In this document: in pieces, positions 50,701 through 64,000 of the stretch | Layout of the letters: the number at the start of each line of letters is the position of its first letter | Numbering within the stretch: position 1 is the stretch's first letter | Assembly (NCBI RefSeq): GCF_016598775.1 | Contig: NZ_CP066802.1 | Span: 2,108,001 to 2,172,000 of the forward strand | Source: Actinomyces weissii | GTDB taxonomy: Bacteria; Actinomycetota; Actinomycetes; Actinomycetales; Actinomycetaceae | DNA: 64,000 nucleotides | Reading direction: 5' to 3' | The notes under the pieces: generated by a model | Database searches by the model: none | Told to the model about the DNA's origin: nothing | Seen by the model: the letters and a program-made list of their open reading frames with translations, nothing else | Translations under genes and position numbers: made by a program

Positions 50701-50791
50701 CCCCCGCAGGCCGTCCTGGTTCTGGCGGGGGGCGGGTGCGGCGGCCTCAGCACCACCGTACCCGCACCAGTAGCGGCGCGTGCCCGTGGAC

Positions 50792-50839
50792 GACGACAGA
50801 CCCGCCCTCTCCTGCTAGGGAGGGGGCGGGTCTGCGTCG
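50792..50839. terminator. Bidirectional terminator between convergent genes
   Basis: CAGACCCGCCC (50797-50807) pairs with GGGCGGGTCTG (50824-50834); an outer CGACG/CGTCG extends the stem past one bulged base. It lies between the ABC-class ATPase and FMN reductase genes. Confidence 0.75.
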
Positions 50840-50877
50840 TAGGCGGGCTGGTCCCGTCTACCGCCTGGGCACTGGGC

Positions 50878-51435
50878 TCAGCGCAGGGCGGAGAGGGCCT
50901 TGTCCTGGGCGAGGATGGCCTCGACCATGGCGGGCACCTCACCGTCGTGGAAGGCGGCGGGCTTGAAGACGCTCATGTTCTCGAAGTCGCTGGCCAGGTG
51001 CAGGTTGACCTCCGGACGCACGACACCGGTGGTGAAGTTGGCCAGTATGTCGCGCAGGTGGCCGGTCTGACGGTGGCCGGAGGAGAAGGAGTAGCCCACC
51101 AGGCCGACAGCGCGGTTGTCCAGGACGGAGGGGGTGATGAAGTCGATGGCGTTCTTCAGGGCGCCGGGCACGGAGCGGTTGTACTCGGGGCTGACGAAGA
51201 TGAAGGCGTCGAAACCAGCCAGGGCCTCGTTCCAGGCCACGGCAGCCGGGTCCTTGGCGGGGGCGAAGGCCGGGGCAGCCTCCTCGACGAAGAGGGGCAG
51301 GTTGAAGGCGGCGATGTCGAGGACCTGGGCCTCAACGCCCTCAACGGTGTTGGCCTTGGCGGCCACCCACTCGGCGACGCCGGCACCGGCGCGGTTGGGG
51401 CGGATGGAGCCGAGGACGACGGCGATCTTGGTCAT
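50878..51435 (-). CDS. NADPH-dependent FMN reductase
   Basis: A 185-residue flavodoxin-fold reductase. The FMN phosphate loop is VVLGSIRPNRAGAGVAEWV, and FIFVSPEYNRSVPGALKNAIDF is the conserved second block of the family; GLVGYSFSSG follows. Such enzymes supply reduced flavin or reduce quinones, azo compounds or metals. It could serve the flavin-dependent oxidoreductase at 4441, but no linkage is visible. A GGAGAG ribosome-binding site lies before ATG, with an AT-rich promoter directly upstream (TTAACGAATCAAGTAA on the minus strand). Confidence 0.9.
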   Translation of the reverse strand: MTKIAVVLGSIRPNRAGAGVAEWVAAKANTVEGVEAQVLDIAAFNLPLFVEEAAPAFAPAKDPAAVAWNEALAGFDAFIFVSPEYNRSVPGALKNAIDFITPSVLDNRAVGLVGYSFSSGHRQTGHLRDILANFTTGVVRPEVNLHLASDFENMSVFKPAAFHDGEVPAMVEAILAQDKALSALR

Positions 51436-51839
51436 GTGCTCTCCTTGCGGGGACGCTGGCGAATTTACTTGATTCGTTAACTACATTAGGGCCGAGGAGG
51501 TCCGCCACGCCAGCACCCGCACCCGTGACCCCCAACACACCCCCTCTCTCGCGAGACCGGGACATATGGCTCACGAGACCGGTAAGGTCACCCTAAGCCG
51601 AAGGCGGGTGACCAGCCCAGGCCCCTCCCACGGCCCGCACGCGGCCAGACCACGGCCAGACCACGGCCCACCTCACGCACGTGCCTGCTGTACCTCAGAG
51701 TCACAACAGCCCAAGGCGGCCCGCACCGGGGAGCGGGCCTCGCCTGCACCACCACCGCCCCGTCAGCACGACGCAGCCCCCTGCCGCCGACCGTGGCACG
51801 GACCGCCCCACGCCGTCGGCGGCAAACCAGGACAGACCC
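51436..51839. other. 404-base gap between the FMN reductase and ilvA genes
   Basis: Contains the FMN reductase promoter (about 51455-51490), a copy of the CGAGACCGG repeat (51547-51597) and a short tandem CCACGGCCAGA (about 51650-51672). No gene recognised. Confidence 0.5.
51547..51597. repeat. CGAGACCGG-family intergenic repeat, copy A
   Basis: The 9-mer CGAGACCGG occurs at 51552-51560 and 51574-51582, exactly 22 bp apart, with GACATATGG between, followed by TAAGGTCACCCTAAG. Nearly identical to the reverse complement of the left half of the copy at 62180. Confidence 0.85.
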
Positions 51840-53405
51840 TCAGCGCGCCAGGAAGAACTGCGCCGAAGGGTCGCCCGTCTCCTCCCGGTAGACGTAGCCG
51901 AGGCGGTCCATGTGCTCGGTGAGCTCCCCCTCAGCCTCCCCGTCACGGACCTCGAAGCCCGCCAGGATGCGCCCGTAGTCGGCCCCGTCGGTGCGGTAGT
52001 GGAACAGGGTCACGTTCCAGCGCGTCCCCAGCACCTCCAGGAAACGGGTCAGCGCCCCCGGGAACTCTGGGAACTCCAGGCTGAAGAGCCGCTCCCCCAA
52101 CCCCTCCGGGGCCCGACCACCGATCATGGAGCGCACGTGCACCTTGGCGAGCTCGTCCTCCGTCAGGTCCACGACGCCGTAGCCCGCCGCCTCCAGGTCC
52201 GCCACGATCTCCCGGCGCTCCTCCCGGCCCCGGGTGAGCCGCACGCCCACGAAGATCCGCGCCGGCGCCCCCGGCGCGGCGGAGGCCGAGACGCGGTAGT
52301 TGAACTCCGTGACGGCCCGACCGCCCAGCACGCGCGCGAAGCGTAGGAACTCGCCCTGCACCTCGGGGATCGTGACCCCCAGGATCGCCTCCCGCTGCTC
52401 ACCGATCTCGGAGCGCTCCGAGATGTAGCGCAGCTGGTGGAAGTTCAGATTGGCGCCGGACAGCACGCAGGCCAGGCGCTCCCCCCGCAGCCCGTGGGCC
52501 GCCACGTACTTCTTCAGGCCCGCGAGCGCGATCGCGCCGCTGGGCTCGGGCACCGCCCGCAGGTCCTCAAAGAGGTCGCGCACGGCCGCGCTGGTCTCGT
52601 CGGAGGAGACGGTGACGACGTCGTCCAGCAGCCCGGCGCACAGGCGGAAGGTCTCGTCACCGATGCGGCGCACCGCGACCCCCTCCGCGAAGAGCCCCAC
52701 CCGTTCCAGGGTGACGGGCCGCCCGGCCTGGAGCGCGGCGGCCAGGCAGGCGGACTCCTCGTGCTCAACGCCCACGACCTGTACCTGCGGCATGAGCTGC
52801 TTGATGAGCACGGCGATCCCGGCCACCAGGCCGCCTCCGCCCACGGGCACGAAGACCCGGTCCAGCTCGGCGTCCTGCTGGATCATCTCCAGGCCGATGG
52901 TGCCCTGCCCGGCGATCACCCGGGGGTCGTCGAAGGGGGCGATGTAGGTCAGGGCGCACTCCTCGGCCAGGCGCAGGGCCTCGGCCTTGGCGGCGTCGAA
53001 GTTCTCCCCCTGCAGCAGGACCTCCCCGCCGAGGGCCCGCACGGCGTCTACCTTGATCTGGGGGGTGACGGTGGGCATGACGATCAGCGAGCGCACCCCC
53101 AGGATCGCGGCGGAGCGGGCCACCCCCTGGGCGTGGTTCCCGGCGGAGGCGGTGACGACGCCGCGGGCACGGACCTCCTCGGGCAGGGAGCGCATGGCGT
53201 TGTAGGCGCCGCGGATCTTGAAGGAGTGGACTGGCTGCAGGTCCTCCCGCTTGACCTCGACCGTGTTCCCCAGCCGGGTGGAGAGGGAGTCCATGACCTC
53301 CAGCGGGGTGTGCTCGGCGGCCTCGTAGACGGGGGCGCGCAGGACGGCCCGCAGGTAGGTGGCCTTGTCCCAGGTCTCGGGGAGCGTGGAGGCAGTCTGT
53401 GTCAC
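51840..53405 (-). CDS. ilvA: Threonine ammonia-lyase, biosynthetic
   Basis: A 521-residue PLP enzyme that deaminates threonine to 2-oxobutanoate, the first step of isoleucine synthesis. The PLP Lys is in PVHSFKIRGAYNA and the phosphate loop is VPVGGGGLVAGIA. The catalytic domain ends near residue 330. Two ACT-like regulatory repeats follow (AILGVTIPEVQGEFLRFARVLG and RLFSLEFPEFPGALTRFLEVLG), which in this class mediate isoleucine/valine control. GTG start. ilvD lies upstream on the same strand, separated by 446 bases, so a separate promoter is likely. Confidence 0.96.
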   Translation of the reverse strand: MTQTASTLPETWDKATYLRAVLRAPVYEAAEHTPLEVMDSLSTRLGNTVEVKREDLQPVHSFKIRGAYNAMRSLPEEVRARGVVTASAGNHAQGVARSAAILGVRSLIVMPTVTPQIKVDAVRALGGEVLLQGENFDAAKAEALRLAEECALTYIAPFDDPRVIAGQGTIGLEMIQQDAELDRVFVPVGGGGLVAGIAVLIKQLMPQVQVVGVEHEESACLAAALQAGRPVTLERVGLFAEGVAVRRIGDETFRLCAGLLDDVVTVSSDETSAAVRDLFEDLRAVPEPSGAIALAGLKKYVAAHGLRGERLACVLSGANLNFHQLRYISERSEIGEQREAILGVTIPEVQGEFLRFARVLGGRAVTEFNYRVSASAAPGAPARIFVGVRLTRGREERREIVADLEAAGYGVVDLTEDELAKVHVRSMIGGRAPEGLGERLFSLEFPEFPGALTRFLEVLGTRWNVTLFHYRTDGADYGRILAGFEVRDGEAEGELTEHMDRLGYVYREETGDPSAQFFLAR

Positions 53406-53851
53406 GGCCCCAGACTAGAGGAGCCACCACCCCCGCCGGACCCCCTGCCACCGCCCCGCCTCCGCGAGACCGGGACATATGGACCGCGAGACCGGTACGC
53501 CCTGTGGATAACTCCGACGGCGCGGCCGTCTGCCTGCACGCTCTGCGCACCCGGTGGCGGGTGGACGACCCCGCCCCTGGTCTTGCACGCACTAGCGGAT
53601 ACGCGACCCAAGAGATCCTTGAGATTCCAACATTTCTAGGACCTGCCCGAAGAAGTAGAGCGCGTCAGGCGCGCAACAGCCTCCGACTTGCACATTATCC
53701 CGGCCGTAACGGTCTCACCGACCGCCCCCAGCAGAACAGCTGCTCCGCGCAATTCCAAGTAAAAGCAGTCACACAGTGGTTTACGTCAGCATTCCCGTGC
53801 GTGCAGCCCGCCCCGTCTGGAGCCTGCCGCCAGCCCCCTGCTTCCCGCGGG
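53406..53851. other. 446-base gap between ilvD and ilvA
   Basis: Contains a CGAGACCGG repeat (53462-53503) 57 bases upstream of the ilvA start. The rest (about 53600-53800) is AT-richer and probably holds the ilvA promoter. I see no leader peptide with an Ile/Val/Leu run and no convincing attenuator. Confidence 0.45.
53462..53503. repeat. CGAGACCGG-family intergenic repeat, copy B
   Basis: CGAGACCGG at 53465-53473 and 53487-53495, 22 bp apart, with GACATATGG between, then TACGCCCTG. About nine tenths identical by eye to bases 62246-62286. Confidence 0.85.
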
Positions 53852-55738
53852 TCACAGACGCGGCAGCCGGTCCAGGTCGCGCACGGCCCCCTGGTCGGCG
53901 CTGGTGGCCAGCATGGCGTATGCGCGCAGGGCGGCGCTGACCTGGCGGGGCCGCTCCACGTGCGGGCTCCACGCCGCCTGCCCCCGGGCCTCCTCAGCCG
54001 CCCGGCGCCGCGCGACCTCCGCCTCGTCCACCATCAGCTCGATCCGCCGGGCCGGGATGTCGATCTCGATCCGGTCGCCGTCACGCACCAGCCCGATCAG
54101 CCCGCCCGCCGCCGCCTCCGGGGAGACGTGCCCGATAGACAGCCCGGAGGTCCCGCCCGAGAAGCGCCCGTCCGTGAGCAGGGCGCACTCCTTACCCAGG
54201 TGCATCGACTTGATGTAGGTGGTGGGGTACAGCATCTCCTGCATGCCCGGCCCGCCGCGTGGCCCCTCATGGCTGATGACGACGACGTCGCCCGCCCGGA
54301 CCCGCCCCCCGAGGATCCCCGCTACCGCGTCCTCCTGGGACTCGAAGACCACGGCGCTCCCGGAGAACACCAGGATGGAGGGGTCCACCCCGGCAGTCTT
54401 GACGATGCAGCCCTTCTCGGCGACGTTGCCGAAGAGCACGGCCAGGCCGCCGTCGGCGGAGAAGGCGTGCTCCCGGTCGCGGACCACCCCGGCCGCACGG
54501 TCGGTGTCCAGCGACTCCCAGCGGGAGGCCTGGGAGAACATCTCGGTGGTGCGCACCCCGGCGGGGGCGGCCAGGTAGCCGGTGCGGACCTCCTGGCTCA
54601 GGGCGGAGCCGGGCACGCCGTCGGGGCCGGGGCGGGCAATGTCGTAGGCGGCCAGCGCCTGCGCCAGGGTGCCCTGCATGACGTTGCGTACCTGGGTGTC
54701 CAGCAGCCCGCAGCGGTCCAGCTCGCCCAGGATCCCCATGACGCCGCCCGCCCGGTGCACGTCCTCGATGTGCACCAGGCTGGTGGAGGGGGCCACCTTG
54801 CAAAGGTGCGGTACCACGCGGGAGAGCCGGTCTATGTCGGCCATGCGGAAGTCCACCCCGGCCTCCTGGGCGGCGGCCAGCAGGTGCAGCACGGTGTTGG
54901 TGGAGCCTCCCATGGCGATGTCCAGGCACATGGCGTTCTCGAAGGCCGCCTTGGTGGCGATGGCGCGAGGCAGGACGGTCTCGTCGTCCTGCTCGTAGTA
55001 GGCCTTGGTGATGGCCACTACCTGGCGGCCAGCGGCCCGGAACAGCTCGCCCCGGTCGGCGTGGGTGGCTAGCAGGGTGCCGTTCATGGGCAGGGCCAGG
55101 CCCAGGGCCTCGGTCAGGCAGTTCATGGAGTTGGCGGTGAACATGCCGGAGCAGGAGCCGCAGGTGGGGCAGGCCAGGCGCTCGATGGCGCTGATGGTCT
55201 CCTCGCTCACGGTGGGGTCGGCGGCGTCCATCATGGCGTCGATCAGGTCCAGCTTGCGGCTGGTGCCGTCGGCGGCGGTGGTGCGGCCGGACTCCATGGG
55301 GCCGCCGGAGACGAAGACCGTGGGGATGTTCAGGCGCAGGGCGGCCATGAGCATGCCGGGGGTGATCTTGTCGCAGTTGGAGATGCACACCAGGGCGTCG
55401 GCGCAGTGGGCGGCGGCCATGTACTCCACGGAGTCAGCGATCAGGTCGCGGCTGGGCAGGGAGTAGAGCATGCCGTCGTGCCCCATGGCGATGCCGTCGT
55501 CCACGGCGATGGTGTTGAACTCCTTGGCGATGCCGCCTGCGGCCTCGATCTGCTCGGCCACCAGGCGGCCCACGTCACGCAGGCCGACGTGCCCGGGCAC
55601 GAACTGGGTGAAGGAGTTGGCGACCGCGATGATCGGCTTGCCGAAGTCCTCGTCCTTGACGCCGGTGGCGCGCCACAGGGCGCGGGCCCCCGCCATGTTG
55701 CGGCCGGAGGTGGAGGTGGCGCTGCGGTACTGCGGCAT
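53852..55738 (-). CDS. ilvD: Dihydroxy-acid dehydratase
   Basis: A 628-residue Fe-S dehydratase of valine, isoleucine and leucine synthesis. Cluster cysteines are in [13 protein letters not shown] and [44 protein letters not shown] and the C-terminal [21 protein letters not shown] are conserved. ATG 55738 has AGGAG 5 bases upstream and gives the family N-terminus [20 protein letters not shown]; the open frame extends further without similarity. It is followed by ilvA on the same strand; no ilvBNC genes in the window. Confidence 0.96.
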
Positions 55739-56091
55739 GGGGGCTCCTGGGGTATGGGCGACACGGTGTGCGAAACCTGGGGCCAGGGTAGTGCGCTGGC
55801 CGTGCCGTGCAGCCGTGGGTGTCATCACGCGGACCCCGGGCTGCCTGTGCCCCCGGCAGAGGAGGGGACGGTCACGCACCAGCTGGGCAGCACCTGCGGA
55901 TTGACGACGGCGGGCGGCAGGCGTCGCGACCACCTTCTGCGGCCCCGTCCTAAAGCAGCAGCCAAGCAGCTGCGCAGGCTCGTTCCCTCAAGGAGCCCAA
56001 GGGGCCGTCTCCTGCAGGCACAGCGGTGCCCCCGTCGGGGCGCACGACGACGGGGGCACCGGGGCCAGCCTGGCGGCTCAGCAGCCGCTGG
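55739..56091. other. 353-base gap between FKBP and ilvD genes
   Basis: Holds the ilvD promoter and the FKBP terminator (56024-56061). No gene or leader peptide recognised. Confidence 0.5.
56024..56061 (-). terminator. Terminator hairpin of the FKBP gene
   Basis: CGGTGCCCCCGTCG pairs perfectly with CGACGGGGGCACCG (14 bp), 10-base loop, 30 bases beyond the stop. Confidence 0.75.
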
Positions 56092-56499
56092 TCACATGAC
56101 CCCCAGGATCTCGGTGACGAAGACCAGGGTGGCGCCGCCCTTGATACCGGCCTGGGGCACGCCGCGGTCGCCGTAGCCCAGTTCGGAGGGGATGGACAGC
56201 AGCACACGGGAGCCGACGCGCTGGCCCACCAGGCCGTCGTCCCAGCCGCGGATGACCATGCCGACGCCGATCTGGAAGCTCAGCGGCTGGCCGCGGTCGT
56301 AGGAGTTGTCAAAGACCTCGCCGTTCCAGGACTGGCCCAGGTAGTGGCAGACGATGGTGTCCCCGGCCTCCACCTGCTGGCCGGTACCGGCGTCGAGGAC
56401 CTGGACCTGCAGGCCCTCAGGGGCCTCCTCGCCAGGAAAGCTCAGGACGGGCTTGGTGCCTTTGGCCCCCTCGACGGTGGGCATGCTCGTGTTGATCAT
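56092..56499 (-). CDS. FKBP-type peptidyl-prolyl isomerase
   Basis: A 135-residue single-domain FKBP that catalyses cis-trans isomerisation of Xaa-Pro bonds. Conserved blocks are GDTIVCHYLGQSWNGEVFDNSYDRGQP, FQIGVGMVIRGWDDGLVGQRVGSRVLLSIP and LGYGDRGVPQAGI; active-site aromatic and Asp residues of the family are present. There is no signal peptide, so it is probably cytoplasmic. Flanked by strong hairpins on both sides, so it is a single transcription unit. Confidence 0.94.
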   Translation of the reverse strand: MINTSMPTVEGAKGTKPVLSFPGEEAPEGLQVQVLDAGTGQQVEAGDTIVCHYLGQSWNGEVFDNSYDRGQPLSFQIGVGMVIRGWDDGLVGQRVGSRVLLSIPSELGYGDRGVPQAGIKGGATLVFVTEILGVM

Positions 56500-56521
56500 G
56501 GCCCCAGGCTACGGGAGGACA

Positions 56522-56574
56522 AGCGCCTGCCACCACCGCGGTTCCAGCTCTGCTCCACGGTGGTGGCAGGCGCT
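56522..56574 (-). terminator. Terminator hairpin of the BI-1 gene
   Basis: AGCGCCTGCCACCACCG pairs perfectly with CGGTGGTGGCAGGCGCT (17 bp) around a 19-base loop, 50 bases beyond the stop. Confidence 0.75.
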
Positions 56575-56624
56575 AGGTCAGTGGCCGGGCGTCTCAGCCC
56601 CGGCCAGGCGTCAGCCCGCAGGAC

Positions 56625-57605
56625 TCAGTTCTCGCGCAGGATCGCCAGGATCCGCAGGAACTCCACGTACATCCACACCAGGGTGACCACCAGGCCGAAG
56701 GCGCCAGCCCAGGCGTAGCGGGTGGGCAGCCCCTGCTCCACGCCCTGCTGGATGGCCTCGAAGTCCAGCACCAGGCTCAGGGCCGCCATGACCACCGCGA
56801 GCAGGCCGATCACCAGTCCGAGCGGGATACCAGCGACCGTCACGCCCCGCAGCCCCCACGGGTCGGAGACTACGCCGGTGACCATCAGCCCGAAGTTCAC
56901 CAGGGAGAACACCAGGTAGCCGCCCATGGCGATCAGCAGGACCTTGCTGGCCTTGGCGGACAGGCGGAACCCGGCCCGGGTGTAGGCCAGCAGCATCACG
57001 CCGAAGGTGGCCGCGCTGGCCAGCACCGCCTGCAGCACGATACCGGGGTAGAGGTTCTCCATGATCCCGGAGAAGCCGCCCAGCATGGCCCCCTCGAACA
57101 CGGCGTAGGCCATGATCAGCAGCGGGCTGGGCTCACGCTTGAAGGTGTTGACCAGGCCCAGGACCAGCGCGCCGACGGCCCCGATCGCCAGGGCCCCCAG
57201 CCCGAGCGCCCCGAGCCTGGCGTCCGTGGAGGACACCATCCCCCAGGTCACCGCCCCGGTAGCCAGGATCACCGCGAAGATCCCGGCGGTGCGCATGACG
57301 ACGTCGTCGTAGGTCATCCGGCCCCGGTCCACGTTGGTGGCCGACGGCGCCGCGTACTGCTGCTCCAGGTGGCTGAGCTGCTGCGGGCTCACGTCGCCGT
57401 AGCCGCTGGCGGGCCGCTGCGAGGTGGGGGCGCCGTAACCGGCCCCGTAGCCGTAAGGCCCGCTCGACGCGTACTGGTCTGCCGGGAGGCCCTGCCCGCG
57501 CTGCCCCACCTGGTAGCCCGGCATGGTCGGGTATCCAGCGGGCGTCGTCAGGGTGGCGGCGCGGCCGTTGAAGGCCGGGTTCTTGGTGAAGAAGGGGTTA
57601 GACAT
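56625..57605 (-). CDS. Bax inhibitor-1/YccA family membrane protein
   Basis: A 326-residue protein. About 100 N-terminal residues are Gly/Tyr/Pro/Gln-rich and probably disordered. Seven membrane segments follow, from MRTAGIFAVILATGAVTWGMV to AGAFGLVVTLVWMYVEFLRILAIL. Family landmarks are VFEGAMLGGFSGIME and LDFEAIQQGVEQGLPTRYAW, the latter holding acidic pore residues. Related proteins are pH-sensitive Ca2+ leak channels; function in actinobacteria is not established. Confidence 0.92.
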   Translation of the reverse strand: MSNPFFTKNPAFNGRAATLTTPAGYPTMPGYQVGQRGQGLPADQYASSGPYGYGAGYGAPTSQRPASGYGDVSPQQLSHLEQQYAAPSATNVDRGRMTYDDVVMRTAGIFAVILATGAVTWGMVSSTDARLGALGLGALAIGAVGALVLGLVNTFKREPSPLLIMAYAVFEGAMLGGFSGIMENLYPGIVLQAVLASAATFGVMLLAYTRAGFRLSAKASKVLLIAMGGYLVFSLVNFGLMVTGVVSDPWGLRGVTVAGIPLGLVIGLLAVVMAALSLVLDFEAIQQGVEQGLPTRYAWAGAFGLVVTLVWMYVEFLRILAILREN

Positions 57606-57898
57606 CTGCTCTCCGATTCCTTGTCAGACCAGGGGCACCTGGTGCAACAAGCCCATTGTGCCAGGCATTCCCCTGGAGGCTACGGGCAGGACTGCACAGT
57701 GGCTAGAGCACCCTGGTCCGCCCCAGCGTCCCAGCCTGACCGCTAAGGGGCCTCCTCCCAGAGGATGAGCAGCCTCCACCTGCAGGCACCCACCTGGGCG
57801 CCAGCGATTTCCTCTGAGCGGCCGATCTGGCGCGGGCCGCCGGTTACTAGCCTGGATACATCACGCAGGAAAGCCGCTATAACCGAAAGGCCCCGCTC

Positions 57899-58834
57899 AT
57901 GATCGAAGCAGTCAACCTCAGCAAGCGTTACGGCAGCAAGCTCGCCGTCGACAACGTCTCCTTCACGGTGGAGCCCGGCACCGTGACCGGGTTCCTGGGC
58001 CCCAACGGCGCCGGCAAGTCCACCACCATGCGCATGATCATGGGCCTGGACCGGCCCACCTCCGGCTCAGTCACGGTCAACGGCAAGCCCTACCGGGAGC
58101 TGAAGGCCCCCCTGTGCGAGGTAGGTGCGCTGCTGGACGCCAAGGGACTGCACGGCTCGCGCACCGCCCGCGCCCACCTGCTGCAGCTGGCGGTCTCCAA
58201 CGGCATCCCCACCCGGAGGGTGGATGAGGTGCTGGAGCTGACCGGCCTGACCAGCGTGGCCAAGAAGCGCGTAAAGGGGTTCTCCCTGGGCATGGGCCAG
58301 CGCCTGGGCATGGCCGCCGCCCTGCTGGGGGACCCGCAGGTGCTGATCTTTGACGAGCCCGTCAACGGCCTGGACCCCGAGGGCGTCAAGTGGGTCCGTG
58401 AGACCTGCCGCGCCCTGGCCGCGGAGGGACGCACGGTGTTCATCTCCTCCCACCTGATGAGCGAGATGTCCCAGACCGCCGACCACCTCCTGGTCATCGG
58501 CCGGGGCCGCATCCTCACCTCCGGCCCGGTGGACCAGGTGATCTCCTCCGCCACCTCGGACCGGGTGCGCGTCACCTCCCCCCAGGCGGAGGCGCTCGCG
58601 CAGGCTCTGACCTCCCGCGGCATCCAGGCCGTGGCCACCGCCCCCGGGGTGCTGGAGACGACGACGGCGAGCGCCGCGCAGGTCGGTGAGACCGCCGCCG
58701 CCCACGGGGTGGTGCTGCACGAGCTGACCACCGTCAAGGCCTCCCTGGAGGAGGCCTACCTGGAGCTGACCAGCGGGGAGGTGGAGTACACCACCGGCTC
58801 CACCACCTCCCTGTCACCGGCCCAGGCCGCCTGA
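57899..58834 (+). CDS. ABC-2 type exporter, ATPase subunit
   Basis: A 311-residue ATPase that energises the permease encoded next. Walker A is GPNGAGKST, the signature is FSLGMGQRLGMAAAL (a common variant of LSGGQ in this class), Walker B is VLIFDEPVNGLDPEG and the switch His is in FISSHLMSEM. The C-terminal 90 residues match the DrrA/CcmA-like extension. GAAAGG lies 10 bases before ATG. The subfamily includes antibiotic and lantibiotic exporters; the two-component system downstream supports induction by an external compound. Confidence 0.92.
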   Translation: MIEAVNLSKRYGSKLAVDNVSFTVEPGTVTGFLGPNGAGKSTTMRMIMGLDRPTSGSVTVNGKPYRELKAPLCEVGALLDAKGLHGSRTARAHLLQLAVSNGIPTRRVDEVLELTGLTSVAKKRVKGFSLGMGQRLGMAAALLGDPQVLIFDEPVNGLDPEGVKWVRETCRALAAEGRTVFISSHLMSEMSQTADHLLVIGRGRILTSGPVDQVISSATSDRVRVTSPQAEALAQALTSRGIQAVATAPGVLETTTASAAQVGETAAAHGVVLHELTTVKASLEEAYLELTSGEVEYTTGSTTSLSPAQAA

Positions 58835-58866
58835 ACCACCAAGCCATACCCGAAGGAAGAACGACC

Positions 58867-59709
58867 ATGAGCACCGCCGTCACCGCCCCGTCCACCCCCC
58901 AGTCCCGCCCCCGCCTGCGCATCCAAGGCAGGCAGAGCTTCCTGACCCTGGTCCGCTCCGAGTGGATCAAGGTCCGTTCCGTGGTATCCACCTGGGTCAC
59001 TGCCGCCCTGACCGTGTCCATCACCGTGCTGCTGGGCGCCGGCCTGGCGATCGGCTACTCCCAGACCCCTGAGATGGCTGAGCAGGCCAAGCACATGATC
59101 GCTGCCGGCTCGGCCTTCGGACACCTGGTGGTGGCCGTGCTCGGAGCCCTGGTGATCACCGGTGAGTACGGCTCCGGGCAGATCCGCTCCTCCCTGGCCG
59201 CCGCCCCGCAGCGCACCCGGCTGATGGCCGCCAAGGTGCTGGTCGTCTCCGCGCTGGCCTTCCTCCTGGGAGCCTTCTCCGTGCTGCTGTCCTGGGCCGT
59301 CTCCGCCCCCTTCATGGGGGAGCACGCCGGCTCCCTGGCCGACGCCCACTACCTGGGCTACGTGTGGGGCACCGGCCTGAGCTTCGTGGTCATCACCGTG
59401 ATGTCCCTGGCCCTGGGCTACCTGCTGCGCTCCACCGCGGGCGCGATCACCGTGAGCATGGTGCTGCTCTTCGTGCTGCAGATCCCCCTGGGCCTGGCAG
59501 CCATGAAGTGGCAGTCGGTCCTCTGGGTGGTCAACCTGCTGCCCGGGGGCGCCGTGCAGGCCCTGGCTGACCCCCACAGCCTGGTCCACACCTGGGGCGC
59601 TGAGGGCTCCTACACCCTCTCCCAGCCGCTGACGGTGGCCGTCGCCGCCGCCTGGGCCCTGGTGCCGCTGCTCGCCGCCTGGGTCACCTTCATCAAGCGC
59701 GACGCCTGA
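58867..59709 (+). CDS. ABC-2 type exporter, permease subunit
   Basis: A 280-residue membrane protein with six predicted helices, among them VSTWVTAALTVSITVLLGAGLAIG, FGHLVVAVLGALVITGEYG, AITVSMVLLFVLQIPLG and LTVAVAAAWALVPLLAAWV. The ITGEYGSGQIRSSLAAAPQRTRLMAAK segment is a hallmark of actinobacterial ABC-2 permeases next to such ATPases. It starts 32 bases after the ATPase gene with GAAGGA upstream. A strong intrinsic terminator follows the stop. Confidence 0.9.
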   Translation: MSTAVTAPSTPQSRPRLRIQGRQSFLTLVRSEWIKVRSVVSTWVTAALTVSITVLLGAGLAIGYSQTPEMAEQAKHMIAAGSAFGHLVVAVLGALVITGEYGSGQIRSSLAAAPQRTRLMAAKVLVVSALAFLLGAFSVLLSWAVSAPFMGEHAGSLADAHYLGYVWGTGLSFVVITVMSLALGYLLRSTAGAITVSMVLLFVLQIPLGLAAMKWQSVLWVVNLLPGGAVQALADPHSLVHTWGAEGSYTLSQPLTVAVAAAWALVPLLAAWVTFIKRDA

Positions 59710-59727
59710 GCAGGTAGCCGCTGGCCA

Positions 59728-59777
59728 GGAAGGAGGGCGGGCGCGGGCCCCAATGGCCCCGCGCCCGCCCTCCTTCC
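59728..59777 (+). terminator. Intrinsic terminator after the ABC-2 exporter
   Basis: A perfect 20-bp GC-rich stem (arms 59728-59747 and 59758-59777) with a 10-base loop, followed by GTTTGAATA. It lies 19 bases beyond the permease stop and separates the exporter from the two-component system. Confidence 0.85.
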
Positions 59778-59833
59778 GTTTGAATAGGTCCGTGACCAAG
59801 GCTGAGGAAGACGCCCTTGAACCGAGGCAAGCC

Positions 59834-61336
59834 ATGACTGTCCCGCCCCGCATCATGCGGGTGGCGGCCTGGCAGGACGCGCACCCGCAGCTGGTGGACG
59901 CCGCCGTCGCCGTGCTCATCTGCCTGCTCAACATCCCCTTGGGCCTGGAGACGCTCGACCATGAGGGCCCCTCCGTCGACTCCTCTGCCACGAGACTGGT
60001 GTCCGTGGCGGCTATCGTGGTGGTCGGGACGGCGCTGCTGCTCCGCCGTCGTTATCCGCTGGCCGTGTGGCTGGTGACCAGCCTGACGCTGCCGGTCGCC
60101 CTGCTGGGGTCCGAACAGCTGCTGGACCTCAGCTTCGAGCAGAAGCGCCAGCTGTTCACCTCCTTGCCGACGCTCAGCCTGCTGGCCGTCCCCCTGACCG
60201 TCGGCACCGTCACCACCCACAGGGCCATGCGGCTGGGCCTGCTGGCCTTCCTGGTCTCCACCGCCGCGGAGACCGCCACCGTCAGCACCCTCTACCCCGT
60301 CAAGGGAGTGCCGGACCTGTTCTCAAACGTCTTCCCCTTCGCCCTGGTGAACCTGATAGGTCTGCTCACGGGCACCCTGCTGCGCGTGCACCGGCAGACG
60401 CTTGAGGACACCAAGGCCTACGCAGCCCGCGCTGCCCTGGCCTCCGAGCAGCGTGCCCTGCTGGCGGCCGCCACCGAGCGAAGCCGGATCGCCCGGGAGA
60501 TGCACGACGTGATCGCCCACTCCCTGGCAGTGATGATCACCATGGCGGACGGCGCGGCGGCCACGATCGACCGCAGCCCTGAGCGGGCCAAGGAGGCCCT
60601 GGGCGTGCTGGCGGAGACGGGCCGCTCAGCCCTGGCCGACACCCGCCGTCTGGTGGGGGTGCTCCGGGAGGACCCAGGTGCCAGCTCGGCGGGCGACGAC
60701 GGCACCGTCCTGCGGGGGGCGGCCACGGCCACTCCCCCGCCACCCGCCCTGGGGCCAGCGCCAGCCAGCGCCCCACAGGTGCGGGACCTGCCCGTGCCCG
60801 AGTTCGCGCCCCCCGGCACCGTCGTCCCCGTGGAGCCCTCCGCCCCGATCGCGGACCTGCGGGCGGACGCCACCACCGGCCAGGACACCTCCACCGGGGG
60901 CACCCCCACCGCCCCCGCACCGGAGTCAGCCGACCTGGAGGTGCTGGTCCAGCGTTTCAAGACGGCGGGCGTGCCCGTCACCTACACCTGGAACGGAGCC
61001 CCCCTGCCGGACGACAAGGGGCTGCAGCTGACCCTGTTCCGCATCGCCCAGGAGGCCCTGACCAATGTGCTGCGCTACGCCCCCACCACCCGCAGCGTGA
61101 AGGTGCAGGTGGACCGGCACACGGGCACGGTGGTGCTGCTGGTGCAGAATGATGCCGCCCCCGGCTCCACCCCCATGCACGGCTCCGGCAAGGGCCTGAT
61201 CGGGATGCGGGAGCGCGCCGCCGTCTATGGTGGGCAGCTGCAGGCAGGGCCAACCGCACAAGGCTGGCAGGTCCGGGCGATACTGCGCTGGGACGAGACT
61301 GACGAAGGAAGCACTTCATGGCAGAGACCATCATGA
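59834..61336 (+). CDS. Sensor histidine kinase (NarL/LuxR-type partner, HisKA_3)
   Basis: A 500-residue membrane kinase. Several helices occupy the first 190 residues (VDAAVAVLICLLNIPLGL, VSVAAIVVVGTALLL, AVWLVTSLTLPVALLG, LSLLAVPLTVGTVT). The HisKA_3 box is RSRIAREMHDVIAHSLAVM (His near residue 223). A Pro/Ala-rich linker (about 296-369) is followed by the HATPase with EALTNVLRYAP (N box) and GKGLIGMRERAAVYGG (G box). ATG 59834 has GAGG 7 bases upstream; earlier in-frame starts lie at or near the terminator hairpin. It overlaps the response regulator gene by 19 bases. Signal unknown; the exporter upstream is a likely target. Confidence 0.92.
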   Translation: MTVPPRIMRVAAWQDAHPQLVDAAVAVLICLLNIPLGLETLDHEGPSVDSSATRLVSVAAIVVVGTALLLRRRYPLAVWLVTSLTLPVALLGSEQLLDLSFEQKRQLFTSLPTLSLLAVPLTVGTVTTHRAMRLGLLAFLVSTAAETATVSTLYPVKGVPDLFSNVFPFALVNLIGLLTGTLLRVHRQTLEDTKAYAARAALASEQRALLAAATERSRIAREMHDVIAHSLAVMITMADGAAATIDRSPERAKEALGVLAETGRSALADTRRLVGVLREDPGASSAGDDGTVLRGAATATPPPPALGPAPASAPQVRDLPVPEFAPPGTVVPVEPSAPIADLRADATTGQDTSTGGTPTAPAPESADLEVLVQRFKTAGVPVTYTWNGAPLPDDKGLQLTLFRIAQEALTNVLRYAPTTRSVKVQVDRHTGTVVLLVQNDAAPGSTPMHGSGKGLIGMRERAAVYGGQLQAGPTAQGWQVRAILRWDETDEGSTSWQRPS

Positions 61337-62049
61337 GCCCCGAGGACAGCCCGGAGGAGCGGCCGCAGCAGGACGCCGGGACGCCGTCGCCCATCCGGGT
61401 GGTGCTGGCTGACGACCAGGCCCTGATGCGGATGGGCTTCCGCATGGTGCTGGAGGCTGAGGACGGTATCGAGGTCGTGGGCGAGGCCTCCGACGGCAGC
61501 TCGGCGGTGGCCCAGGCCCGGGCGCTGCGCCCCGACGTGATCCTCATGGACGTGCGTATGCCGGGCATGAACGGCATTGAGGCCACTGAGGCGATCACCG
61601 CCCAGTGCCCCGCCACCAAGGTCCTGATCCTGACCACCTTCGACCTGGACGAGTACGCCTTCGCCGGGCTCAAGGCGGGGGCGGCGGGCTTCCTGCTCAA
61701 GGACACCCGCCCGGCGGACCTGGCGGAGGCGATCCGCACGGTGGCCGGTGGGGAGGCGGTGGTCTCGCCCCGGGTCACGCGGCGGATGCTGGAGATGTTC
61801 GCCTCCCGCCTGCCCGACTCCGGGCCCGTGGCCCAGGCCGAGGACCCCCGCGTGGCCGCACTGACGCCCCGCGAGCGGGAGATCCTGGTGCTGATGGCCC
61901 ACGGGCTGTCCAACGCGGAGATCGCCGAGTCGCTGGTGGTCTCGGCCACCACCGTGAAGACCCACGTGGGCAACGTGCTGGCCAAGTTCAACGTGCGGGA
62001 CCGGGTGCAGGCGGTGGTGGTCGCCTACGAGAGCGGCCTGATGTCCTGA
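61318..62049 (+). CDS. LuxR/NarL-family response regulator
   Basis: A 243-residue DNA-binding regulator, partner of the kinase it overlaps. The receiver domain has VVLADDQALMRMGF (acidic pocket), VILMDVRMPGMNGIEA (phospho-Asp) and LLKDTRPADL (Lys). The C-terminal HTH is LTPREREILVLMAHGLSNAEIAESLVVSATTVKTHVGNVLAKFNVRDRVQAVVVAYE-type, with a normal LuxR recognition helix. The first 25 residues are a hydrophilic extension. It probably controls the ABC-2 exporter genes. Confidence 0.94.
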   Translation: MAETIMSPEDSPEERPQQDAGTPSPIRVVLADDQALMRMGFRMVLEAEDGIEVVGEASDGSSAVAQARALRPDVILMDVRMPGMNGIEATEAITAQCPATKVLILTTFDLDEYAFAGLKAGAAGFLLKDTRPADLAEAIRTVAGGEAVVSPRVTRRMLEMFASRLPDSGPVAQAEDPRVAALTPREREILVLMAHGLSNAEIAESLVVSATTVKTHVGNVLAKFNVRDRVQAVVVAYESGLMS

Positions 62050-62179
62050 GGACCGCCGCCCGGTGGGCCCGCCGGCTCAGGGGGCACTGGCGATCAGGTC
62101 GAGGTCTTCAAGCGCCGCCCCGCAGGCCCGCCGGCTCAGGGCTCTCCACAGCCAGGATCGTTTATAAGGCCGTCTCTTC

Positions 62180-62286
62180 TAAGGTCACCCTTACCGAACT
62201 CGCGAGCCATATGTCCCGGTCTCGCGAGACCGGGACATCGGTACCGCGAGACCGGGACATATGCACCACGAGACCGGTACGCACTG
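62180..62286. repeat. CGAGACCGG-family intergenic repeat, copy C (five-unit array)
   Basis: Reverse-oriented units at 62194-62202 (degenerate) and 62216-62224, forward units at 62225-62233, 62247-62255 and 62269-62277. All same-strand neighbours are exactly 22 bp apart. The inner pair forms the perfect 28-bp palindrome 62211-62238. The array sits between convergent genes and ends 4 bases from the pth stop. Confidence 0.88.
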
Positions 62287-62289
62287 GAC

Positions 62290-62886
62290 TCAGGCGGAGC
62301 GCAGGCGCTGCTGGACGATCTCAAAGCCCACCGTCACCACGGCCTCGACGGCGTCAGCCGCCTGCTCCAGGGTCACGGCCAGCTCCTCACGCTCCCGGGA
62401 CGGGAAGTCCGAGAGCACGTAGTCGGCGGGGTCCTGCCGCCCCGGGGGACGGCCCACCCCCACCCGCAGGCGGGCGTAGTCGCGGGTCCCCAAGGCCTGG
62501 GAGACGGAGCGCAGGCCGTTGTGCCCACCCTCGCCACCACCCCGCTTGAGCCGCAGCTGGTGGGCGGGCAGGTCCAGCTCGTCGTGCACCACCAGCAGCC
62601 GCGCCGTCGGGTCGATCCCGTAGAACTGGGCCAGCGCCTTGACCGGCCCCCCGGACAGGTTCATGAAGGCCGCTGGCTCAGCCAGCACCACCCGTGGCCC
62701 CGGGGCGCCCCCCGGCAGCAGGCCCAGCCGCACCTCCGCCACCTGGGCGCGGGCCTTGTGCCGGGTGAGCCGAGACCCGGCACGCCCCGCCAGCAGCTCG
62801 ACCACCATGTGGCCGACGTTGTGACGGTTCCGCGCGTACCGGGCCTCGGGGTTCCCCAGCCCGACGACGAGCCAGGGGTCACTCAC
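62290..62886 (-). CDS. pth: Peptidyl-tRNA hydrolase
   Basis: A 198-residue enzyme that releases peptides from dropped-off peptidyl-tRNA. The fold begins [24 protein letters not shown]; the catalytic His is in [43 protein letters not shown] and GGHNGLRSV are conserved. It lies 37 bases downstream of the L25 gene on the same strand, a common bacterial arrangement (rplY-pth), so the two are probably one transcript. Confidence 0.96.
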
Positions 62887-62923
62887 AGCGTCTCCTCAGC
62901 AGCACCCTGCCTGTTCAGGCGGC

Positions 62924-63523
62924 TCACTCGGCCTCGGCGGCGGGGGCCTCGTCAGCGGCGGGGACCGCCTCGGTGACCGCGTTCTCGTCCGCGACGTTGA
63001 CCACGCCGGCCTCGGCGTCGCCCAGGGCCTCCACGCCAGCGGGCAGCTTGAGGTCGGCGACGGTGATGATGGTGCCGCCAGCCACGCCGGTCACGTCCAC
63101 CTCAATGGCCTCGGGGATGGACACGGCCGGGGCGGAGACGAGCAGGTTGGCAGCCTCGATCATGTGGATGGTGCCCGGCTCGGCGTCACCGACGACGGTC
63201 ACCGGCACCTCCACCTCGACGCGCTCGTTGCGGTTCACCAGCTGGAAGTCCACGTGCTGCACCCCGGTGCGGATGGGGTGGCGCTGCACGGCCTTGGTCA
63301 GGACCAGCAGCTTCTCACCGGCCAGGTCCAGCTCGATCAGCGCGTTCTCGTTGCCGCGCAGGGCCAGGGAGGTGGCGTGGCCGGGCAGCAGGACGTGGCG
63401 GGGCTCAGAGCCGTGCCCGTAGACGACGGCGGGCACCAGCCCGTCACGGCGGGCCTGGCGGGAGGCCCCCTTGCCGAAGTCGGTGCGGTCCTGGGCGGTG
63501 AGCTTGGTGGCTTCGTGGGCCAT
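62924..63523 (-). CDS. rplY: Ribosomal protein L25 (TL5/Ctc type)
   Basis: A 199-residue 5S rRNA-binding protein with the extra C-terminal Ctc domain. The N-terminal RNA-binding part has RTDFGKGASRQARRDGLVPAVVYG. The second domain has HVDFQLVNRNERVEVEVPV and ends VADLKLPAGVEAL; an acidic Ala/Glu tail follows. ATG 63523 has GAGGAGG 6 bases upstream; the frame is open further but without similarity. The leader contains two GC palindromes (63575-63594 and 63628-63643). Confidence 0.95.
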   Translation of the reverse strand: MAHEATKLTAQDRTDFGKGASRQARRDGLVPAVVYGHGSEPRHVLLPGHATSLALRGNENALIELDLAGEKLLVLTKAVQRHPIRTGVQHVDFQLVNRNERVEVEVPVTVVGDAEPGTIHMIEAANLLVSAPAVSIPEAIEVDVTGVAGGTIITVADLKLPAGVEALGDAEAGVVNVADENAVTEAVPAADEAPAAEAE

Positions 63524-63574
63524 GAGGTCCTCCTCGGTCAGGCGGGGCCTCGCCCCGCGTCGTGTGGTGGGCCC

Positions 63575-63643
63575 GCTGCGCGTCGACGCGCAGCACCTGT
63601 CAGGCACCACCACGTCGATAACGGATGCACGCGCAAGCGCGTG
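63575..63643 (-). promoter_or_regulatory. Two palindromic hairpins in the rplY upstream region
   Basis: A perfect 20-bp palindrome GCTGCGCGTCGACGCGCAGC at 63575-63594, and CACGCGC-AA-GCGCGTG at 63628-63643. One may end aroD (minus strand, stop at 63707), the other may be a leader structure of rplY. Confidence 0.45.
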
Positions 63644-63706
63644 TCCCTCGCCGGGGCAACAGGAGGAGCCTACCTGAAGGCGCCCGCACCCTGAACGCGA
63701 CGCTGC

Positions 63707-64000
63707 TCACTGCCCGCTGGCGGCCCGGACCACCGCCACCGGCAGCTGCCCGGGCGCGGAGGCCACCGCCCCGGCCCCCGCCGTCGCAAAGCTCAGGGCT
63801 GAGCCCAGGCGCCACCCCTGGGTGCGGGTCACCTCCCCTAACGCCCCCATGCCGATCACCACCACCGGGATCTCCAGCTCGGCGCGCGCCCGGGAGGTCA
63901 GGTCCAGCAGCCGCCGCACCTCCCCCTCCGTGTCGGGCATAACCGCGACCTTGGCCACCTGCGCCCCGGCGGCCTGCATGCGCCACAGCCGCTCCAGCAG
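63707..64000 (-). CDS. aroD: Type I 3-dehydroquinate dehydratase, C-terminal part (5' end outside the window)
   Basis: About 97 C-terminal residues are visible. AQVAKVAVMPDTEGEVRRLL contains the Schiff-base Lys region of type I DHQases. VVVIGMGALGEVTRTQGWRLGSALSFAT and the ending SAPGQLPVAVV are the family's conserved C-terminal blocks. The enzyme makes 3-dehydroshikimate in the shikimate pathway. Many actinobacteria use the unrelated type II enzyme, so this is a useful taxonomic hint. The reading frame continues past base 64000. Confidence 0.9.
   Translation of the reverse strand: MLERLWRMQAAGAQVAKVAVMPDTEGEVRRLLDLTSRARAELEIPVVVIGMGALGEVTRTQGWRLGSALSFATAGAGAVASAPGQLPVAVVRAASGQ

What the first reader, a model, noticed from the sequence alone, without database searches (positions are those of the whole stretch)
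62180..62286. Five-unit CGAGACCGG array with exact 22-bp phasing and a perfect 28-bp palindrome
Two reverse units (62194, 62216) and three forward units (62225, 62247, 62269) flank a central palindrome (62211-62238). All same-strand spacings are 22 bp, about two helical turns. CATATG separates two of the unit pairs. The same unit pair occurs at two other intergenic loci in this window. Exact phasing and head-to-head symmetry suggest repeated protein binding on one DNA face or a REP/BIME-like mobile palindrome, not a simple terminator. I do not recognise it as a named element.
Basis: partly seen in the sequence, partly recalled or inferred. Interest (0 to 1): 0.8.

Follow-up and report, generated by a model that had tools for sequence, protein, structure and literature searches.

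The report
Phased intergenic repeat arrays in Actinomyces
The array is one of roughly a hundred copies in this bacterium of a DNA repeat family seen only in the genus Actinomyces: a 9-base word repeated every 22 bases beside genes, which looks like a set of docking sites that has spread through the chromosome without the enzyme usually blamed for such repeats.

Summary
The genome holds 188 matches to CGAGACCGG-N13-CGAGACCGG (at most 2 mismatches; backwards control 0), in 104 array loci, 97 intergenic by my gene caller. The family is genus-wide: 15 of 49 Actinomyces genomes have at least 10 matches to a relaxed core, up to 652; 164 other genomes of the family show chance level. Between species the spacers differ, but core (mostly CGARAYCGG) and period stay: 364 of 364 intervals were 22 bp in 12 sets; low-copy species mix 22 and 23. 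Arrays have an outer and an inner side; separate neighbours under 4 kb apart mostly form inverted brackets (30 of 37). Homology fades about 25 bp outside the array; adjacent genes here are enriched in TAA stops. Two relatives lack arrays at all three window sites. Palindrome arms share private variants. Y1 (RAYT) transposases were found in 0 of 49 genomes; no target-site duplication was seen. Best reading: a non-autonomous, foldback-like intergenic element whose unit is a phased protein-binding site. Binding protein and mover were not found. The kind is known; this form appears new.

The parts
62194..62277 (.). composite array: two minus-strand units (62194-62202 CGAGTTCGG, 62216-62224) head to head with three plus-strand units (62225-62233, 62247-62255, 62269-62277), period 22
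62211..62238 (.). perfect 28-bp palindrome at the junction of the two arms
   Evidence: 62190-62282 folds at -35.3 kcal/mol, z -8.9
62180..62193 (-). inner flank of the minus-strand arm, TAAGG-N4-CCTTA type
   Evidence: consensus over 87 pure array arms
51552..51582 (+). two-unit array between the threonine ammonia-lyase gene (51840-53405, minus) and a gene with weak similarity to FMN reductases (50878-51435, minus)
51527..51551 (+). C-rich outer flank of the 51552 array
   Evidence: outer homology fades near 25 bp
51583..51596 (+). inner flank TAAGGTCACCCTAA
53465..53495 (+). two-unit array between the dihydroxy-acid dehydratase gene (53852-55738, minus) and the threonine ammonia-lyase gene
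53503..53511 (+). TGTGGATAA, DnaA-box-like word on the inner side; the only TTRTCCACA-type match in the window
53600..53764 (-). weak copy of the noncoding interior module (model R1, E 5.6e-6), which belongs to a second repeat family

Best explanation
The array is one end, or a fused pair of ends, of a non-autonomous mobile intergenic element specific to Actinomyces. The element has a C-rich outer flank of about 25 bp, a block of 2 to 8 copies of a 9-bp core spaced about two DNA turns apart, and an inner flank; two such ends often face each other in inverted orientation round a variable interior, like a foldback transposon. SHOWN: family, restriction to the genus in the genomes searched, phasing, polarity and bracketing, an edge to the outer homology, preference for gene 3' ends, presence/absence between relatives, arm-to-arm identity, species-specific spacers round a constant core. 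INFERRED: a sequence-specific protein binds the cores side by side on one DNA face; it, or an enzyme that uses it, copies the element to new intergenic sites in bursts; fold-back template switching makes the second arm an exact copy of the first; conversion between loci spreads each species' spacer version while binding preserves core and period.
For: 188 pair matches, control 0. Genus-wide with core drift (CGAGACCGG, CGAGATCGG, CGAAACCGG, CGAGAACGG) and differing spacers. 364 of 364 intervals at 22 when 21-23 was allowed (loci were chosen with a 22-bp pattern, so one interval per array is not independent). Bracketing: of 37 separate neighbours under 4 kb apart, 30 '+-', 6 '++', 1 '--', 0 '-+' (the 17 fused head-to-head arrays count as single loci). 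Homology to the best partner falls from 0.53 at 20-25 bp to 0.35 at 25-30 bp outside the array. TAA stops in 17 of 34 array-adjacent genes against 14 of 230 others. Arrays absent at 3 of 3 window loci in G033 and G009, G009 having 2 matches in all. Positions hardly shared between G000 and A. gaoshouyii (3 of 29 distinct loci). Arms identical in 17 of 18 distinct compact palindromes, and in 6 of 17 head-to-head junctions in G000, five of these by private variants.
Against: No target-site duplication in 24 bracket pairs. No transposase recognised, by eye and without a domain search, in the 15 bracket neighbourhoods translated, nor among the 25 of 54 Pfam families shown for 41 flanking proteins of low-copy species. 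No autonomous copy found. No clean empty site: the intergenic regions of relatives differ throughout. Array positions are kept between species that are 88-95% identical, as function would also give. TAA enrichment is weaker with a narrower array definition (9 of 27 vs 25 of 233) and in the other species (8 of 54 vs 16 of 315). In G000 three of the 17 junctions have only one unit on one side, and 6 matches stand against 2.6 expected. The protein is hypothetical.
Confidence: 0.55

Rival explanations
1. A host system, not a selfish element: arrays are operator blocks for a chromosomal DNA-binding protein that marks or silences gene boundaries, as a transcription road-block or nucleoid anchor, and are kept by selection.
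For: Core and phase conserved while spacers diverge; outer side faces gene 3' ends 54 times and 5' ends 27 times in G000; positions kept between close species.
Against: 21 of 49 genus genomes have no match, and 200 kb of one of them show no 22-bp excess; copy number swings from 2 matches (G009) to 144 (G000) between relatives that are 91-93% identical in three of five aligned stretches and 75-83% in two; positions differ between clades.
Confidence: 0.25
2. An RNA element: transcribed 3'-end hairpins that terminate transcription or protect the message.
For: Frequent place after stop codons (34 genes within 60 bp, distance 10-43 bp, commonest 18); two compact palindromes fold very strongly (-52.8 and -56.8 kcal/mol as DNA).
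Against: The two single-direction arrays of the window fold no better than shuffles; no T-run terminator at the 62-kb locus; in co-directional regions the second array of a bracket lies towards a gene 5' end; no Rfam family matches the window arrays above its gathering score.
Confidence: 0.1
3. Chromosomal descendants of an iteron replication origin: 22-bp direct repeats next to a DnaA box, bound by a Rep protein.
For: DnaA-box-like TTRTCCACA words in 36 of 117 inner flanks against 3 of 117 outer flanks; 22-bp iterons next to DnaA boxes are known in plasmid origins (recalled).
Against: 81 of 117 inner flanks lack the exact word; blastn of the 221-bp 62-kb region found no array in the plasmid or phage collections (best E 0.6-0.7); the 3 IMG/VR stretches with the pair pattern show a lone pair without the flanks of the family; no Rep gene was sought.
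Confidence: 0.05
4. REP/BIME elements moved by a RAYT (Y1) transposase.
For: High copy, intergenic, mosaic and alternating orientations as in BIMEs.
Against: 0 of 49 genus genomes have a Y1 match, while 5 of 14 control genomes ring; the unit is not itself palindromic.
Confidence: 0.03

Closest known systems
STAR elements of Staphylococcus (PMC3532100, passages read)
   Same: intergenic direct repeats of a short GC-rich core with recurring spacers; different loci and copy numbers in each species; mechanism of spread unknown
   Different: 14-bp core and spacers of 40 bp or more, against 9 and 13; STAR spacers are reported as locus-specific without conversion, here they are homogenised into species versions; the passages read do not mention inverted arms, brackets or a two-turn phase
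REP/BIME elements with RAYT (PMC2817692, PMC3733652, passages read)
   Same: high-copy, intergenic, mosaic arrangements, alternating orientation, preservation of palindromes
   Different: no Y1 transposase match in 49 genomes; units are direct repeats, not palindromes
BOX elements of Streptococcus (PMC3049150, passages read)
   Same: modular: flanking modules round a variable number of tandem middle modules, number varying between strains
   Different: unit length and sequence; arrays here are often paired in inverted orientation; folding is not general
Foldback transposons of eukaryotes (recalled)
   Same: inverted ends made of tandem sub-repeats round a variable interior
   Different: bacterial, short, no transposase known
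Tn7/Mu ends and plasmid iterons (recalled)
   Same: 22-bp protein-binding units in arrays
   Different: no matching transposase or Rep gene identified; dispersed in hundreds

Membership tests
REP/BIME with RAYT | Y1 (PF01797) RAYT transposase in the genome | tested here: not met
   0 of 49 genus genomes; 5 of 14 control genomes ring
REP/BIME with RAYT | unit is itself an imperfect palindrome | tested here: not met
   single-direction arrays at 51552 and 53465 fold at z -0.85 and 0.35
REP/BIME with RAYT | high copy, intergenic | tested here: met
   188 matches; 97 of 104 loci intergenic by my gene caller, 84 of 87 with a narrower array definition
MITE | terminal inverted repeats round an interior | tested here: met
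   30 of 37 separate neighbours under 4 kb apart are inverted brackets; many arrays have no partner
MITE | target-site duplication | tested here: not met
   24 bracket pairs, mean shared word 3.9 against 4.1 permuted, 173 of 200 permutations at least as high
MITE | cognate transposase with matching ends | not tested
   only Y1 was searched genome-wide
STAR | 14-bp core T(G/A/T)TGTTG(G/T)GGCCC(C/A), spacers of at least 40 bp | tested here: not met
   9-bp core and 13-bp spacer; definition from PMC3532100
STAR | short GC-rich intergenic direct repeats with recurring spacers, species-specific loci | tested here: met
   but loci are shared between close species
BOX | boxA/boxB/boxC sequences | not tested
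   no comparison with BOX sequences was made
Intrinsic terminator | GC hairpin followed by a T run | tested here: not met
   0 found at 62000-62400; only this locus scanned
Iteron origin | direct repeats with an adjacent DnaA box | tested here: inconclusive
   36 of 117 inner flanks
Iteron origin | Rep initiator gene | not tested
   no search made
Rfam RNA families | match above gathering score | tested here: not met
   window 50000-64000 searched at E up to 1; the hit over the 62-kb array (mir-9209) scores 28.9 against a cut-off of 90

The most novel reading that the evidence does not exclude
A genus-specific chromosome address system: an unknown Actinomyces protein reads CGARAYCGG cores phased at two DNA turns, in arrays that mark intergenic borders with a fixed polarity; protein and core have co-evolved between species while conversion rewrites the spacers, so that each species carries its own dialect at dozens to hundreds of sites.
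Probability: 0.2. Interest if true: 0.85.

Novelty: new variant of a known kind. Interest (0 to 1): 0.6.

Why it matters
The best-studied dispersed palindromes of bacteria are tied to a Y1 transposase. This family reaches hundreds of copies in a genus where no such enzyme was found, keeps a 9-bp core and a two-turn phase while the sequence round it changes, and shows arm-to-arm copying. It offers a clean case for asking what spreads such repeats and which protein reads them, and the close sets (A. gaoshouyii, A. denticolens and G032; G000 with G009 and G033) make gain, loss and conversion directly observable.

Tried and rejected
RAYT: rejected. RNA family: no Rfam match above its cut-off over the arrays or over the interior module (4 loci). 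Phage or plasmid origin: blastn of 221 bp found nothing convincing; the pattern scan gave 3 IMG/VR stretches, each a lone pair without the family's flanks when read. Brackets as gene cassettes: rejected as a rule, since the interiors up to 1 kb are mostly noncoding, although several longer ones hold ordinary genes; the 1-kb insert between the arms of one palindrome in G032 is unexplained. Target-site duplication: none. Shared array positions between distant clades: 3 of 29 A. gaoshouyii loci with G000, which I judge near chance; that expectation is my estimate, not a computed control. Autonomous element in low-copy genomes: the flanking genes shown were ordinary. 22-bp arrays in a zero-match genome: no excess in 200 kb of G037.

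Literature, open-access PMC papers only: Actinomyces with intergenic repeat and palindromic (0 papers); CGAGACCGG (89 papers, 10 listed, none on bacterial repeats by title); Actinomyces with repetitive extragenic palindromic (4 papers, on streptococci by title); Actinomyces with intergenic, tandem repeats, interspersed; CGAGATCGG (245 papers, 6 listed, none on bacterial repeats by title); REP sequences/RAYT/Actinobacteria/MITE; miniature inverted-repeat; BOX/BIME/Actinomyces (none on Actinomyces repeats by title). The unlisted papers were not seen.

Limits of my counts: both gene callers are simple codon-usage callers of my own, so intergenic place, stop codons and facing counts depend on them. 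One search counted some loci twice; one search gives distinct loci (10 of 13 instead of 11 of 14, 8 of 25 instead of 9 of 30, 3 of 29 instead of 3 of 35). One search counted some low-copy loci twice; one search gives 35 pairs at 22, 14 at 23, 2 at 24, 1 at 21. In one search one compact palindrome was counted twice (L146 and L099), so 18 of 19 is 17 of 18. One pair match, at G000 494752 (2 mismatches, a different spacer), was judged chance by eye and not fetched. One search failed and one search aligned the wrong strand; one search replaces both. G040 stretches contain masked bases.

Full report
WHAT WAS CHECKED. The five units, the 22-bp spacing, the 28-bp palindrome and the two further pairs are exactly as reported. 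Five pair matches in the window compare with a mean of 0.02 in 100 shuffles. The 62-kb array lies between a response-regulator gene (61318-62049, plus) and pth (62290-62886, minus); names.

THE FAMILY IN THIS GENOME. G000 (2.56 Mb, one contig) has 95 forward and 93 reverse pair matches with up to 2 mismatches, control 0. Sixty stretches round the hits plus the window give 104 array loci (one match at 494752 left out as chance); 17 of them are fused head-to-head arrays. There are 117 arms of 2 to 5 units. The anatomy recurs: a C-rich outer flank ending in CCG or TCG; units of CGAGACCGG plus a 13-bp spacer (of 182 spacers, GACATATGTACCG 42, GACATATGGCTCA 40, GACATCGGTACCG 29, GACATATGGCTCG 25); then on the inner side TAAGG-N4-CCTTAG and often TTGTGGATAAC (total). 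An exact DnaA-box-like TTRTCCACA word occurs within 60 bp in 36 of 117 inner and 3 of 117 outer flanks. By my gene caller 97 of 104 loci are intergenic; with a narrower array definition 84 of 87.

POLARITY AND BRACKETS. Separate neighbouring loci less than 4 kb apart are 30 '+-', 6 '++', 1 '--' and 0 '-+'; between 4 and 8 kb there are 3, 1, 1 and 1; beyond 8 kb 9, 11, 16 and 24. The fused head-to-head arrays are '-+' junctions at distance zero and are not in these counts. The brackets up to 1 kb enclose mostly noncoding DNA with the C-rich side outwards; some longer ones hold ordinary genes. The outer side faces a gene 3' end 54 times and a 5' end 27 times (genes within 400 bp). Intergenic regions with arrays were divergent in 5 of 70 cases, those without in 20 of 132.

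EDGE AND STOP CODONS. Each outer flank was compared with its best partner, chosen on the first 20 bp. In the 50 strong pairs identity is 0.53 at 20-25 bp, then 0.35, 0.34 and 0.30 up to 40 bp; shuffled flanks give 0.25-0.31. On the inner side the fall is slower: 0.60, 0.55, 0.44, 0.37 (62 strong pairs). The outer side therefore has an edge near 25 bp. Of 34 genes whose 3' end lies within 60 bp of the outer side, all stop 10 to 43 bp from the first unit, 26 within 25 bp, 8 at exactly 18. Seventeen of 34 use TAA, against 14 of 230 other genes (Fisher p 1e-9). With a narrower array definition the figures are 9 of 27 against 25 of 233 in G000, and 8 of 54 against 16 of 315 in eleven other sets: same direction, weaker. 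The simplest reading is that the element brings a stop codon; I did not show this case by case.

GENUS-WIDE, WITH CORE DRIFT. With CGANANCGG cores, 28 of 49 genus genomes match: 15 have at least 10 matches (G040 652, G041 325, G027 257, G032 211, G004 148, G000 144, G048 119, G035 110, G014 104, G016 101, G030 70, G005 34, G038 20, G021 16, G029 13), 13 have 1 to 8, 21 have none; controls sum to 4. Of 164 genomes in other genera of the family, 13 match, at most twice, with 3 control matches. The main core is CGAGACCGG, CGAGATCGG, CGAAACCGG or CGAGAACGG according to species. Over 12 sets, 364 of 364 intervals were 22 bp when 21-23 was allowed, with one interval per array set by the search pattern. 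In 88.5 kb of G040, core pairs 22 bp apart number 75, against 1 at 21. The loci of ten low-copy genomes give 35 distinct core pairs at 22, 14 at 23, 2 at 24 and 1 at 21, so the phase is about two turns rather than one exact number. Ten stretches (200 kb) of the zero-match genome G037 show no 22-bp excess.

TURNOVER. G033 is probably A. bovis. Its one exact-core array appears to be the one that A. bovis NCTC11535 shares with G000 in a stretch of at least 5.1 kb that is 95-98% identical, while the window region is 75-85% identical in G033. G009 is 75-93% identical over the window region and has 2 matches in all. In both, the three window loci have no array and no single exact unit in the intergenic regions. 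At 62 kb the convergent genes nearly abut in G033; in G009 another gene lies between them. Array positions are shared in 10 of 13 distinct G032 loci with A. gaoshouyii and in 8 of 25 A. denticolens loci with A. gaoshouyii, all partial samples, but in 3 of 29 A. gaoshouyii loci with G000, which I judge near chance. At shared loci the aligned stretches are 88-95% identical while units differ in number and spacer: at one locus both arms read TCGAAAATAGGAG in A. gaoshouyii and TCGAAGTGGCGAT in A. denticolens. At another, a palindrome with an 8-nt loop in A. gaoshouyii has about 1 kb between its arms in G032.

ARMS. In A. gaoshouyii, A. denticolens and G032, compact palindromes (loop 4-24 nt) have identical spacers in both arms in 18 of 19 cases, 2.7 expected; 17 of 18 after removing one locus counted twice. 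In G000 6 of 17 head-to-head junctions match, 2.6 expected (three of the 17 have a single unit on one side), and five of the six are variants found 1 to 3 times among 182 spacers. One arm thus looks copied from the other, as fold-back template switching would do. Of five strands folded, the three two-arm arrays fold far better than shuffles and the two one-direction arrays do not.

INTERIOR. Fifteen G000 brackets of 456-969 bp contain a noncoding module of about 170 bp. A sequence model finds it 22 times in G000, 21 of them inside or beside array loci by their coordinates, and in G016 (19), G039 (12), G031 (6) and six further genomes once each. In the loci of G016, G031 and G039 that I read it is a symmetric element of about 190 bp, mostly without arrays near it (4 of 18 G016 loci had one). 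It is a second repeat family that sits in the brackets here.

MECHANISM. Polarity, edge, copy bursts, clade-specific sites and end pairing argue for a mobile, non-autonomous element; core and phase kept against changing spacers argue for a protein that reads them. Neither the protein nor the mover was found: no Y1 transposase in 49 genomes, no target duplication in 24 bracket pairs, no transposase recognised in the neighbourhoods that I looked at (other transposase families were not searched genome-wide). Selection on a host function remains the main rival.

COMPARISON. Nearest in kind are STAR repeats, BIMEs and BOX elements, read in passages; none fits fully, as the membership table shows. 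I found no description of this family in the listings of the searches named under Tried and rejected.

Noticed in passing
G016, G031 and G039 loci L228-L230, L238-L240, L242-L244, L246-L266; window 53600-53764: A second Actinomyces repeat family: a symmetric element of about 190 bp with four copies of a GAATGTGCA word (at 0, 83, 105 and 188 in G016) and ends TGTTGCACATTC / GAATGTGCAACA; diverged copies sit inside the array brackets of G000.
   Followed up: partly
L034:831-939 (G000 C1 about 250830): Actinomyces-1 RNA (RF02928) at 68.4 bits, above its cut-off of 39.1, near but not part of an array bracket.
   Followed up: no
L097 (A. bovis NCTC11535) and L064 (G000): At least 5.1 kb are 95-98% identical, while the window region is 75-85% identical in G033, probably the same species: looks like recent horizontal transfer that carried an array along.
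   Followed up: partly
L164:11643-12709 (G032) against L140 (A. gaoshouyii): About 1 kb of DNA without a clear intact gene lies between the two arms of a palindrome that is compact in the sister species.
   Followed up: partly
IMG/VR loci L124-L126: Three viral-contig stretches hold the exact pair pattern; each is a lone pair without the family's flanks.
   Followed up: yes
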